This document shows positions 1,802 to 5,282 of a DNA stretch of 13,999 nt, one piece after another (the first letter of the stretch is position 1; each line of letters starts with the position of its first letter). The translations under genes were made by a program, and so were the position numbers. Source of the DNA: an uncultured Trueperaceae bacterium (lineage in GTDB: Bacteria > Deinococcota > Deinococci > Deinococcales > Trueperaceae). The notes beneath the pieces are model-generated. The model was not told the origin of the DNA. It ran no database searches and was given only the letters and a program-made list of their open reading frames with translations. Location of the stretch: positions 1 through 13,999 of the forward strand of contig CALCHY010000347.1 in the NCBI GenBank assembly GCA_937907415.1. Reading direction: 5' to 3'.

Positions 1802-2776
1802 TCACTTCTTCCTCGAGGATGCAAGATGCCGCTTGGGCCCCGCTTGCGCCTCGTCAAGCAGCCGCTTGGCGGCCTCGGCAGCGTCCTCCAGGCCGCTAGG
1901 CAGAACGTGCCCATAGCGCTTCAGGGCCGCGGCCGCTGGCCCGCCGAAAGCGACCTGCACCCCACTCGCCGCCGCCCGCAGGGCCTTGGCTACGGTGGCG
2001 GCCGCGGCGGAATCCTCCTCCATGACCACTCCGATTACCGCCATCCGCGCCCCGTTGCTCGAAACGGCCTCGACCCAGTCGGCGGCGGGAAGATCGCTTC
2101 CTACGTAGATTGTCTTCACGCCGAGCCGGCGGAGAGCCACGCCGAAGGCCAGCGCCCCCAACTCGTGGCGCGCGCCGGGCGGCAGGCCCACCACTACGTC
2201 GGCCCGCGCTGTGTCGCGGGACGCGGCGTCGTAGCGCTGCCCTAGCCAACGGAGGATCGCGGCGCTGGCCACATGCTCCCCTGCCACCGACACCTCGCCC
2301 GCAGCCCAGGCGTCGCCGACGGCCCGCAGTGCAGGGAAGAGCCTGGTCTCGACCGCCACCTCGAACCGGCCGGCGGCGGCGAAGTCGTGCAACAGATCGG
2401 ACAGCGTCGCGGCGTCCAGACGGGCAGCGGCGTCCACGAACCGCGCCTGGAGCTTCCCACTAGCTTCGGAGGCCGGGGTCGCATTAACGCCGTCAGGTGT
2501 TGCGGCCGCGGCCTCCGCAGCGCCTCGAGGTGCCGAGTTGTCCGCGGGTCGTCGCCCTTCCGCTGCCGTCAACACGTGGCCGGCGGCCTCACGCGCGCGC
2601 CAGCCGCTGTCGATGAGCTCGCGCATTGCTTCTAGCTGCGCGATGTCTGCTTCGCTGTATAGCCGGTAACCAGAGGGCGAGCGTTGCGGCTGCACCACGC
2701 CGTAGCGCTTCTCCCACGCCCTCAGAAGGTCGGGGGTGAGTCCCACGCGGTCGGCTGCCTCCCTGATCGTGAACAT
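1802..2776 (-). CDS. MerR-family regulator with B12-binding domain (CarH/LitR-like photoreceptor)
   Basis: A 324-residue DNA-binding protein. Residues 1-70 form a MerR winged helix (FTIREAADRVGLTPDLLRAW then the GYRLY wing). An alanine-rich linker follows (about 71-107), then a four-helix cobalamin-cap domain (108-185) and a Rossmann B12-binding domain (193-310). The CarH signature W-x9-EH is present as Trp157, Glu167 and His168. The axial cobalt ligand should be His204 in ARHELG, where the usual acidic first residue is Ala. Family members bind adenosylcobalamin in the dark as a DNA-bound tetramer, and light breaks the tetramer and relieves repression. The residue after Trp157 is Ala, where Thermus CarH has the His that ligates cobalt after light. 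The ATG at 2776 is chosen over an in-frame ATG 26 codons upstream because a -10 box lies only seven bases before it and the MerR domain begins at once. It is divergent from the DUF378-MMPL pair, its likely target. Confidence 0.93.
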   Translation of the reverse strand: MFTIREAADRVGLTPDLLRAWEKRYGVVQPQRSPSGYRLYSEADIAQLEAMRELIDSGWRAREAAGHVLTAAEGRRPADNSAPRGAAEAAAATPDGVNATPASEASGKLQARFVDAAARLDAATLSDLLHDFAAAGRFEVAVETRLFPALRAVGDAWAAGEVSVAGEHVASAAILRWLGQRYDAASRDTARADVVVGLPPGARHELGALAFGVALRRLGVKTIYVGSDLPAADWVEAVSSNGARMAVIGVVMEEDSAAAATVAKALRAAASGVQVAFGGPAAAALKRYGHVLPSGLEDAAEAAKRLLDEAQAGPKRHLASSRKK

Positions 2777-2783
2777 CAAGCCC

Positions 2784-2812
2784 AGTATAGAGGTTAGACA
2801 GAGGCTTGACAA
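2784..2812 (-). promoter_or_regulatory. Promoter of the MerR/CarH-like gene, probably leaderless
   Basis: On the minus strand TTGTCA (2812-2807) is followed after 17 bases by TATACT (2789-2784), close to consensus for the housekeeping sigma factor. Only seven bases separate the -10 box from the ATG at 2776, so the transcript should start at or next to the start codon. No Shine-Dalgarno site is present. Leaderless genes of this layout are common in Deinococcus and Thermus. Confidence 0.8.
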
Positions 2813-2835
2813 GCAACGAGCGCAACGAGTAGACT
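2806..2835 (+). promoter_or_regulatory. Promoter of the DUF378-MMPL operon
   Basis: TTGACA (2806-2811) is followed after 18 bases by TAGACT (2830-2835). The expected start of transcription is near 2842, giving a leader of about 55 bases before the DUF378 ATG. The -35 hexamer is the same DNA as the -35 of the opposing regulator promoter (TTGTCA on the other strand), so one bound repressor could block both. Confidence 0.75.
2813..2829. repeat. Tandem 8-bp repeat in the promoter spacer
   Basis: GCAACGAG occurs at 2813-2820 and again at 2822-2829, a perfect repeat with a 9-bp period. It fills almost the entire spacer between the -35 and -10 boxes of the DUF378 promoter and the gap between the two pairs of 11-bp repeats. 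It may be an extra binding site or a chance duplication. Confidence 0.5.
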
Positions 2836-2897
2836 CTGGACAAACCTTGAACAAGAGTTCTGGGTTTCAAAGCCTGATGGTACGGAAGGGAACACAC

Positions 2898-3113
2898 ATG
2901 CGCACGCTCAAGTTCATCTCAATGATCCTCGTAATCGTCGGAGCCCTCAACTGGCTACTCGTCGGCCTCTTCGGCTTCGACCTGGTGGCCGCCGTGACCG
3001 GCAACTCGTTCGGCGAGAAGAACGCTCTGTCGTCGATCGTCTACGTCCTCGTCGGACTGTCAGGGCTGGTCGTACTGCCGTCGGTGTTTACCGCGAAGCA
3101 GTCGGTCGCCTAA
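2898..3113 (+). CDS. DUF378 family small membrane protein
   Basis: A 71-residue protein with two predicted membrane helices (about 6-31 and 46-63). The block GALNWLLVGLFGFDLV at 15-30 is the hallmark of the DUF378 (YuzA-like) family, and the length is normal for it. The function of the family is not established. The ATG at 2898 is preferred over the in-frame ATG at 2877 because GGAAGGG (2884-2890) lies seven bases before it. It is the first gene after the promoter at 2806-2835, with the MMPL exporter 81 bases downstream on the same strand, so the two are probably co-transcribed and under the divergent CarH-like regulator. It may be an envelope-stress or accessory membrane protein, but that is a guess. 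Confidence 0.9.
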   Translation: MRTLKFISMILVIVGALNWLLVGLFGFDLVAAVTGNSFGEKNALSSIVYVLVGLSGLVVLPSVFTAKQSVA

Positions 3114-3194
3114 GCCACCCCACGCCCGCGAGCATGAGTGGCAACAACAACTCGCACCTGAGCCGTACCTGCGGAAGAGAGAGTGGAATCGAAC

Positions 3195-5282
3195 ATGCGT
3201 AAGGTCCGCGGCTTGGTGCCGCTCGTGCTCGCACTGATCTGGGTCGCCCTCACCGGCGTGGGCGGCCCTTACTTCGGCCGACTGTCGGAGGTCATCGAGC
3301 AGTCGAGGACCAGCTTCCTGCCGGCCAGTGCAGAATCGACTCGAGTGAGCGAGATCTTGGCGGCCTCCGCCCAGGCCGAGAACCCGCCGGCCATCCTCCT
3401 GTATCACGCGCCTGGCGGCTTCGACTCCGCCAAACGCGCAGGAGTAGAGGCCCAGTTCGCCGAGATCACGGCCTTGAGCGGGGTCGGTCAGTCATCGCCC
3501 CTCCTGCCTTCGCGCGACACCTCCGCCAACGGCGATCCGTTGGCGCTGCAGGCGTTCGTACTGATCGAGGGCGATCCACGCGAGGCCGTTCAAGAGATGC
3601 GGGCCATCACCGCCCAGCCGCCCGCTGGGGTGGAGGCCTACGTAACCGGCCCGGCCGGGCTCGTCGCAGACCTCTCGGGCGCGTTCGCCGGCATCGACGG
3701 GCTGCTACTCGCCGTCGCCGTGATAGCCGTCCTTATCATCCTGTTCATCGTCTATCGCAGCCCTATCCTCCCGCTCATCGTGCTGCTCAGCGCCGTCGCC
3801 GCGTTGGCCTCGTCGATCATCGCCGTGTACTACATGGCCGCCGCCGGCTGGATAAAGCTGGACGCGCAAGCGCAGGGCATCCTGTTCATCCTGGTGATCG
3901 GGGCGGCCACCGATTACGCGCTGCTGCTGGTGTCGCGCTTCCGCGAAGCGCTGCACGATGAGGAGGACCACCGCAAGGCGCTCGGCACCGCGTGGCGCGC
4001 CACCGTCGAGCCGGTGGTGGCCTCGGGCGGGACCGTCATCGTGGGGCTCCTGTGCCTGCTGTTCTCCGACCTCAACTCCAACAAGGCCGTCGGGCCGGTG
4101 GCGGCGTCGGGCATCTTGTTCGCCATGCTGTCGGTGCTCACGTTCCTCCCCGCCCTATTGGCGTTGTTCGGGCGGCGGGTGTTCTATCCCAACGCACCGC
4201 GGGTCGGGCTGGCGGAGCGTAGCGGGATCGGGTTCTGGGCCGCGGTGGCCAAGCTCATCGCCAGCCGACCGCGCACCGTATGGTCGGTTACATTGGTGGC
4301 GCTCCTCGCTGCCGCCGCCTTCGTGCCGCAACTACGCGCCACGGGCGTACCCGAGAGCGACTTCGTGCTCGGGTACTCGGAGGCGCGAAGTGGCGAGGCG
4401 GTGCGCGAGCGCTACTTCGCAGCTGGCGTCGGTACCCCTGTCATCGTGCTCGGCCGCCCCGAGCTGGCGGAGCAACTCCTGGCCACCGTGAAGGGCGTCG
4501 AGGGCGTCACGGGCGCCTCGATCACCGTCAGCGCTTCGGTGGTGTCCGGCCGCGGGGACGCCGCCGCTTCGCCGCTTCTCTTCCCTTTCGCAGGCGAGGA
4601 GTGGATCGAGATCGAAGCCACCCTCGCCTCCGCCGAGGGCAGCGACGCGGCCTCCGAAACGGTCAGGCGCCTGCGCACCGCCGTCCATGCGGTTGACGAG
4701 CAGACGCTGGTGGGCGGTGGCACCGCCGTCGACATCGACACGCGCGACACTGCCCGCGCCGACATCTTCAAGATCATCCCCATCGTCCTCGTGGCGATAA
4801 CCATCATGCTGATGTTGCTGCTCCGCTCGCTGGTCGCGCCGCTCATCCTGATAGCCACCACCGTCATCTCCTACCTGGCCACTCTCGGTGTGGCGGCGCT
4901 GGTGTTCAACCACCTGTTGGAGTTCCCAGGCGCCGATCCGAGCGTGCCGCTCTTCGGCTTCGTGTTCCTCGTGGCGCTGGGAATCGACTACAACATCTTC
5001 CTCACCACCCGCATCCGTGAGGAATCCATTGAGAGGGGCACACGCGAGGGCGTGCTGCACGGCCTGCTGGTGACGGGCAACGTCATCACCTCGGCCGGTG
5101 TCGTGCTGGCGGCGACCTTCGCGGCCCTCGGGGTGATCCCGATCATGTTCATGCTGCAACTGGCCTTCATCGTGGGCTTCGGCGTGCTGCTCGACACCTT
5201 CGTCGTGCGCTCGCTGCTGGTTCCCGGGCTGCTGTACGACATGGACAAACGCGTGTGGTGGCCGTCGAAGCTGTCGCGCTGA
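3195..5282 (+). CDS. MMPL/RND family transporter
   Basis: A 695-residue inner-membrane protein with the two-fold RND layout. One helix (about 5-22) is followed by a periplasmic domain (about 23-165), a block of helices (about 168-325), a further helix (362-378), a second periplasmic domain (about 380-525) and a final block of helices (527-676). Paired Asp-Tyr residues in the membrane, D240-Y241 in ATDYALLL and D598-Y599 in GIDYNIFL, match the proton-relay pairs of MmpL proteins. This supports proton-driven export of a lipid or hydrophobic molecule; the substrate is unknown. The start could instead be the GTG at 3183 (GGAAGAG just upstream); ATG 3195 is taken because it is a stronger codon with GAGTGGA seven bases before it. 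It is probably in an operon with the DUF378 gene, an unusual target for a CarH-like regulator, which more often controls carotenoid or photolyase genes. Confidence 0.94.
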   Translation: MRKVRGLVPLVLALIWVALTGVGGPYFGRLSEVIEQSRTSFLPASAESTRVSEILAASAQAENPPAILLYHAPGGFDSAKRAGVEAQFAEITALSGVGQSSPLLPSRDTSANGDPLALQAFVLIEGDPREAVQEMRAITAQPPAGVEAYVTGPAGLVADLSGAFAGIDGLLLAVAVIAVLIILFIVYRSPILPLIVLLSAVAALASSIIAVYYMAAAGWIKLDAQAQGILFILVIGAATDYALLLVSRFREALHDEEDHRKALGTAWRATVEPVVASGGTVIVGLLCLLFSDLNSNKAVGPVAASGILFAMLSVLTFLPALLALFGRRVFYPNAPRVGLAERSGIGFWAAVAKLIASRPRTVWSVTLVALLAAAAFVPQLRATGVPESDFVLGYSEARSGEAVRERYFAAGVGTPVIVLGRPELAEQLLATVKGVEGVTGASITVSASVVSGRGDAAASPLLFPFAGEEWIEIEATLASAEGSDAASETVRRLRTAVHAVDEQTLVGGGTAVDIDTRDTARADIFKIIPIVLVAITIMLMLLLRSLVAPLILIATTVISYLATLGVAALVFNHLLEFPGADPSVPLFGFVFLVALGIDYNIFLTTRIREESIERGTREGVLHGLLVTGNVITSAGVVLAATFAALGVIPIMFMLQLAFIVGFGVLLDTFVVRSLLVPGLLYDMDKRVWWPSKLSR

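What the first reader, a model, noticed from the sequence alone, without database searches (positions are those of the whole stretch)
2784..2854. Divergent promoters sharing one -35 inside a repeat-built operator beside a CarH-like regulator
Seen: TTGTCA-17-TATACT on the minus strand and TTGACA-18-TAGACT on the plus strand use the same seven bases (2806-2812) as -35. The block is made of two pairs of 11-bp direct repeats (2791-2812 and 2833-2854) around a tandem 8-bp repeat. Known: Thermus CarH binds tandem 11-bp direct repeats overlapping a -35 box. Inference: one CarH-like tetramer bound here would silence both its own gene and the DUF378-MMPL operon, and a second could sit at the start site, giving a light-controlled switch with two sites.
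Basis: partly seen in the sequence, partly recalled or inferred. Interest (0 to 1): 0.75.

Follow-up and report, generated by a model that had tools for sequence, protein, structure and literature searches.

The report
Two-part CarH operator beside DUF378
The gap between two opposite-facing genes holds four copies of the DNA word recognised by the vitamin-B12 light sensor CarH, placed so that the bound sensor would cover both ends of a promoter, and the same layout recurs beside the same small membrane-protein gene in other bacteria, which points to an unstudied light-response switch.

Summary
All four 11-mers (2791, 2802, 2833, 2844) match the published CarH unit nnnnTnnACAn in register; the exact tandem form occurs twice in the window, both here (0.07 expected; 0 of 200 shuffles reach two). 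The neighbouring regulator is CarH-like by domains, AdoCbl residues and predicted fold. The layout is conserved: the -35 lies in the last unit of array 1, and array 2 starts at the -10. A blind genome scan gave 38 loci, 22 beside CarH-like genes and 12 with DUF378; heliorhodopsin, photolyase, fasciclin and DUF4397 genes recur nearby. In one class 12 of 13 DUF378 genes lie within 3.2 kb of CarH. Three DUF378 genes without a CarH neighbour lack the arrays. So the operator and its second site are supported. A shared -35 fits the nearest relatives but only 7 of 22 regions. Light control is likely, not secure: His132 of TtCarH, reported to couple light to tetramer break-up, is Ala158 here. Binding, repression and light response are untested. 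I judge it a new variant of a known kind: split operator, new target family, naturally H132A-like regulator.

The parts
1802..2776 (-). CarH-like regulator, 324 aa: MerR DNA-binding domain, B12-binding_2 and B12-binding domains; W157, E167, H168, H204 present, Ala158 where TtCarH has His132
   Evidence: Pfam; PDB sequence match to TtCarH; alignment; AlphaFold2 model; Foldseek
2791..2812 (+). Array 1: two tandem CarH-type units (2791-2801, 2802-2812); the second contains the plus-strand -35 and the minus-strand -35
   Evidence: TnnACA pattern; conserved layout
2833..2854 (+). Array 2: two tandem CarH-type units (2833-2843, 2844-2854); starts inside the plus-strand -10 and covers the expected start site
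   Evidence: position 1 base after the -10 in 12 of 20 regions with a -10 at 17/18 bp
2806..2835 (+). Promoter for DUF378: TTGACA-18-TAGACT
   Evidence: TA...T at 17 or 18 bp in 20 of 22 aligned regions
2784..2812 (-). Promoter for the regulator: TTGTCA-17-TATACT, predicted leaderless
   Evidence: minus-strand TA...T at 16-18 bp in 7 of 22 regions
2813..2829 (+). Tandem 8-bp repeat GCAACGAG between the arrays; not conserved
   Evidence: present; absent in 21 other regions
2898..3113 (+). DUF378 small membrane-protein gene, 71 aa, likely controlled gene
   Evidence: Pfam (72.8 bits); divergent from CarH in relatives
3195..5282 (+). MMPL-family transporter gene downstream; co-transcription with DUF378 is inferred only
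   Evidence: Pfam; no promoter-like site found in 3114-3194

Best explanation
The gap is the operator of the neighbouring CarH-like regulator. In the dark, with AdoCbl bound, the regulator assembles and its MerR-type heads bind two pairs of 11-bp units: one pair ending in the -35 (2791-2812), the other starting inside the -10 and running past the start site (2833-2854). This locks both ends of the DUF378(-MMPL) promoter. The first pair also covers the -35 and most of the spacer of the regulator's own leaderless promoter, so it represses itself too. Loss of the adenosyl group in light weakens binding and frees both promoters. Shown by sequence: the units, their fixed place on the promoter elements, their conservation, and the pairing with CarH and DUF378. 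Inferred: binding, repression, self-repression, light release, and the number of tetramers.
For: Published unit nnnnTnnACAn (PMC9304148 passages) in all four 11-mers; statistics. CarH-like protein. Two-array layout beside CarH in relatives. Blind pattern: 22 of 38 loci beside CarH-like genes, 12 with DUF378. Without motif selection: split score beats all 500 shuffles at 10 of 13 DUF378 genes of the class of G002 and at L118 and the window, and is reached in at most 4 of 300 shuffles at 20 of 23 CarH genes. TTGACA-to-pair distances there are only 30-31 (11) and 41-43 (8). Light-linked neighbours confirmed by Pfam: heliorhodopsin (L125, L138, L147), photolyase domains (L126, L140, L153). Normal 17-18 bp spacers argue for repression.
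Against: No binding or expression data. His132 of TtCarH is Ala158; TtCarH H132A is reported to stay mostly tetrameric in light, though an earlier report saw disassembly (PMC10442372 passages). NCBIfam CarH cutoff missed, 124.6 of 400 bits. 16 of 38 blind loci are not beside CarH; in the class of G025 the pattern (7 hits) is at control level (6). Some paired loci score weakly: L164 88/500, L170 14/500, L167 10/500; L188 67/300, L187 12/300, L180 291/300. No carotenoid gene was noticed in the window (10 proteins scanned).
Confidence: 0.7

Rival explanations
1. The regulator is an AdoCbl (B12 status) sensor rather than a photoreceptor: same operator and repression, but light matters little because the ligand that couples photolysis to dissociation is missing.
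For: Ala158 in place of His132; His in 0 of 19 DUF378-linked CarH against 45 of 114 others; H132A behaviour of TtCarH (PMC10442372 passages).
Against: Heliorhodopsin and photolyase genes recur beside the same operator. An earlier report of light disassembly of full-length H132A is cited in the same paper. His132 varies widely among proteins that keep W/E/H/H (40 of 123 His).
Confidence: 0.2
2. The regulator acts as a classical MerR-type activator that bends and untwists the promoter.
For: MerR-type DNA-binding domain.
Against: Spacers are 17-18 bp in 20 of 22 regions, not the over-long spacers of MerR activators (recalled); units flank the spacer instead of lying in it.
Confidence: 0.06
3. The repeats are chance resemblances to a -35 box and have no operator function.
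For: Generic repeat search does not list the 11-mers; with one mismatch the pattern is at chance; TTGACA itself fits the unit.
Against: Exact-form statistics; conservation at fixed spacing; array 2 is not a -35; arrays are missing at three DUF378 genes without a CarH neighbour.
Confidence: 0.03

Closest known systems
CarH of Thermus thermophilus and its operator (PDB 5c8d/5c8e; PMC9304148 and PMC10442372, passages)
   Same: Domain order, AdoCbl residues, fold; 11-bp nnnnTnnACAn units with the -35 inside one unit
   Different: There three contiguous units; here 2+2 units split by 20 bp over -35 and -10; Ala in place of His132; DUF378 instead of carotenoid genes
CarH operators of Bacillus megaterium and of myxobacteria (PMC9304148 passages)
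   Same: Units may overlap -35 or -10; in some myxobacteria one operator is expected to serve divergent promoters
   Different: Those described are tandem runs; a fixed split with a second array starting at the -10 was not in the passages seen
Heliorhodopsin genes with MerR-family neighbours (PMC11109279, passages)
   Same: A published neighbour group; at L125 and L138 the neighbour is CarH-like and the gap holds the split operator
   Different: The passages seen name neither CarH nor an operator; the window has DUF378 and no heliorhodopsin was found among the 10 proteins scanned

Membership tests
CarH/LitR B12 photoreceptor-repressors | MerR DNA-binding domain plus helical-bundle and Rossmann B12-binding domains | tested here: met
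CarH/LitR B12 photoreceptor-repressors | AdoCbl residues W131, E141, H142, H177 of TtCarH | tested here: met
   W157, E167, H168, H204, invariant in 25 of 25 sequences; residue list from PMC11796333 passages
CarH/LitR B12 photoreceptor-repressors | His132, upper ligand after photolysis in TtCarH | tested here: not met
   Ala158; but only 40 of 123 proteins that keep W/E/H/H have His there, so it does not define the family at large
CarH/LitR B12 photoreceptor-repressors | Operator of tandem 11-bp nnnnTnnACAn units overlapping the promoter | tested here: met
   Sequence only; binding not tested
CarH/LitR B12 photoreceptor-repressors | AdoCbl-dependent assembly and light-induced release | not testable with these tools
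   needs purified protein
NCBIfam NF052513 (CarH equivalog) | Score above the curated cutoff of 400 bits | tested here: not met
   124.6 bits; I therefore say CarH-like, not CarH equivalog
Classical MerR activators | Operator within an over-long 19-20 bp spacer (recalled) | tested here: not met
   18 bp here, 17 or 18 in 20 of 22 regions; units flank the spacer

The most novel reading that the evidence does not exclude
A clade of CarH photoreceptors that naturally lacks His132 uses a split operator clamping both ends of one promoter to control a light-response set outside carotenoid synthesis (DUF378, heliorhodopsin, fasciclin, DUF4397, photolyase). The layout spans several phyla, and regulator, operator and DUF378 moved together into a Trueperaceae-like host. 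DUF378 would then be a photoprotection or light-signalling membrane protein.
Probability: 0.4. Interest if true: 0.8.

Novelty: new variant of a known kind. Interest (0 to 1): 0.62.

Why it matters
It gives a functional lead for DUF378, a family of unknown function, and ties some heliorhodopsin genes to a known type of light-controlled repressor. It offers natural H132A-like CarH proteins next to His132-type CarH in the same bacterial family, so the disputed role of His132 in light release becomes directly testable. A two-array operator that covers both core promoter elements could also serve as a tight green-light switch.

Tried and rejected
Chance repeats: rejected and by conservation. The 8-bp tandem as an operator part: absent in 21 of 21 other regions. 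MMPL as a general partner: beside DUF378 only in the window among 123 sequences searched (many flanks are 1.5 kb). MerR-type activation: spacers are normal. A contiguous four-unit operator: its raw score was not above the split score in any of 23 regions (the split score had five spacings to choose from), and no TTGACA-to-pair distance of 11 occurs there. Near-identity search of plasmids: no match. Five blind hits (L141-L145) are another repeat family upstream of a DnaG-like ORF (Pfam confirmed for L144 only). In the class of G025 the blind pattern is at control level; only L128, L133 and L134 there lie beside CarH.

Selection effects: the 22 regions were chosen out of 121 unique upstream regions for a pair at 30-32, 36 or 37 bp, and 13 of the 22 had been found only by the pattern; the -10 and the minus strand were not part of the selection. 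Counts free of motif selection are. In one search one of 24 CarH loci was dropped (no N-terminus). In one search one of 23 loci (L122) had no DUF378 by my HMM. scan pair spacings 40-44, which does not model the 3+3 loci: L059 7/500, L070 9/500, L062 3/500, L049 10/500. In one search the best place at L189 was not the split site, although the exact pattern hit the same locus as L148. One automatic tree label rule was corrected. Fasciclin, photolyase, heliorhodopsin and DUF4397 calls are phmmer matches to single queries taken from L125, L126 and L131, so those loci match themselves; Pfam checked 6 proteins and 10.

Full report
OBSERVATION. The -35 hexamers overlap at 2807-2811 and together span 2806-2812. 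The 11-mers agree pairwise at 8 of 11 positions, and a generic repeat search does not list them. Their meaning appears on comparison with the published CarH unit, 5'-nnnnTnnACAn-3' (PMC9304148, passages seen). TNNACANNNNNTNNACA occurs twice in the window, both here; 0.07 expected, 0 of 200 shuffles reach two. With one mismatch allowed the count is at chance.

REGULATOR. The gene 1802-2776 (-) has MerR, B12-binding_2 and B12-binding domains. Its best PDB sequence matches are TtCarH. The AlphaFold2 model (pLDDT 86.2, pTM 0.64) has full-length TtCarH as top Foldseek hits; whole-chain rmsd is large (about 10-20 A), while rows covering about 200 columns, essentially the B12 domain, fit at 2.4-3.6 A. 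The TtCarH AdoCbl residues W131, E141, H142, H177 (PMC11796333, passages) correspond to W157, E167, H168, H204, invariant in 25 of 25 sequences. It misses the NCBIfam CarH cutoff (124.6 of 400 bits), so I call it CarH-like.

CONSERVATION. Among 80 loci from the protein-based scan of named genomes, DUF378 lies upstream of and divergent from CarH in L001, L002, L049, L059, L062 and L070; a family search added L089. Their gaps show two arrays, complete or with imperfect units; L059 and L070 have 3+3 units. To test the layout without gene content I scanned whole genomes with TTGACAN{24,32}TNNACANNNNNTNNACA, the tool adding a reversed-pattern control. Seventeen chosen genomes: 9 hits, control 0. 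Class of G025: 7 hits in 111 genomes, control 6. Class of G002: 19 hits in 177 genomes, control 0. Class of G124: 10 hits in 299 genomes, control 1. The sets overlap; together they give 38 loci, L123-L160. CarH-like genes lie beside 22 of 38; DUF378 is in 12, photolyase in 6, fasciclin-query matches in 7, heliorhodopsin in 4, DUF4397 in 3. Pfam confirmed heliorhodopsin in L125, L138 and L147 (258-263 bits), photolyase domains in L126, L140 and L153, DUF4397 in L126, L148 and L150, and fasciclin in L123, L131, L146 and L159; the others rest on phmmer. Of the 16 loci not beside CarH, three carry other light-set genes (L126, L131, L146), five are another repeat family upstream of a DnaG-like ORF, and eight are unexplained.

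COUNTS FREE OF MOTIF SELECTION. In the class of G002, DUF378 occurs in 13 of 177 genomes. By the coordinates are divergent from and adjacent to CarH, one is adjacent on the same strand (G293), one is 3.1 kb away (G265), and one (G211) has no CarH match but has the split operator (L146/L168). Against dinucleotide shuffles 10 of 13 promoters beat all 500; L167, L170 and L164 give 10, 14 and 88 of 500. The window and L118 (G025) also beat all 500. Three other DUF378 genes of that family (L119-L121), with no CarH in the 1.5-kb flanks, score 8, 6 and 9 of 16, which 206, 500 and 319 of 500 shuffles reach. Of the 24 strongest CarH loci in the class, 23 had a readable upstream region: 20 reach their split score in at most 4 of 300 shuffles; L187, L188 and L180 in 12, 67 and 291. 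In those 23 regions the distance from TTGACA to an exact tandem pair is 30 or 31 (11 times) or 41-43 (8 times, one unit further on) and nothing else up to 90. In the wider set L006-L080 (74 regions) distances are mixed: 31 is the commonest, 3 of 9 on the divergent strand and 1 of 3 on the other.

GEOMETRY. Across 22 aligned regions a TA...T hexamer lies 17 or 18 bp from TTGACA in 20; between it and the first T of array 2 there is 1 base in 12, 2 in 3, 3 in 3, and 7 or 8 in the two 3+3 loci. So the last unit of array 1 holds the -35 and the first unit of array 2 runs from the -10 over the expected start. In the window first unit to first unit is 42 bp, about four helical turns (arithmetic). On the other strand TA...T lies 16-18 bp from the same -35 in 7 of 22 (window, L127, L128, L152 at 17; L139, L140, L149 at 16), 7 of 66 cells against 6 of 418 at distant offsets. 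The shared -35 is credible here but is not a rule of the family.

HOST AND HISTORY. No host genome is held. A permease of the window matches G041 at 67% and G001 at 63%, both in the group of the Trueperaceae-titled L030; full-length matches listed for Chloroflexota-type genomes reach 43% at most. Against a simple picture, G025, which holds the closest regulator found in whole genomes, also matches this permease at only 43%. The window's regulator and L089 nest in a clade with Chloroflexota CarH (SH-aLRT 98-99), apart from the other CarH of the family of G001. This fits horizontal arrival of regulator, operator and DUF378 together (inference). DUF378-linked CarH proteins fall in three separate parts of the tree: 12 changes, at least 6 forced by well supported branches (133 rows, quick tree).

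LIGHT OR B12. PMC10442372 (passages) reports that TtCarH H132A mostly stays tetrameric in light and notes an earlier report of disassembly. The equivalent residue is Ala158; in 25 close sequences it is Ala 19, Ser 4, Glu 1, His 1. It is His in 0 of 19 DUF378-linked CarH and 45 of 114 others, and in 22 of 25 other CarH of the family of G001. These counts are not corrected for kinship. So light release in this clade must work without that ligand, or the protein senses B12. The light-related neighbours make me prefer light.

PRINT. DUF378 is in 10 papers of the library; none of the titles and abstract openings listed concerns CarH. CarH with heliorhodopsin: none. CarH with fasciclin: 5, unrelated by title. 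A MerR neighbour group for heliorhodopsin is published (PMC11109279, passages). The library holds open-licence papers only.

VERDICT. Binding, repression and light response remain to be shown.

Noticed in passing
L141-L145, around 1490-1560: Repeats built on CTTGACAAGG, partly inverted, upstream of a DnaG-like primase ORF in five genomes of the class of G002 (Pfam checked for L144 only). A separate conserved element, function unknown.
   Followed up: partly
L125 1501-2457; L138 586-1548: Heliorhodopsin gene divergent from a CarH-like gene with the split operator between them.
   Followed up: partly
L126 1-2351: A split-operator match lies between a photolyase gene and a DUF4397 gene without CarH in the fetched flanks; the genome has a CarH elsewhere.
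   Followed up: partly
L131 1501-2217: A second split-operator match in the Latescibacterota genome G123, before a fasciclin-domain protein gene.
   Followed up: partly
L133 and L134, 1501-1551: Two genomes of the class of G025 carry the pattern at a different spacing (34 bp) overlapping the start of a His132-type CarH frame on the same strand; may be self-control.
   Followed up: no
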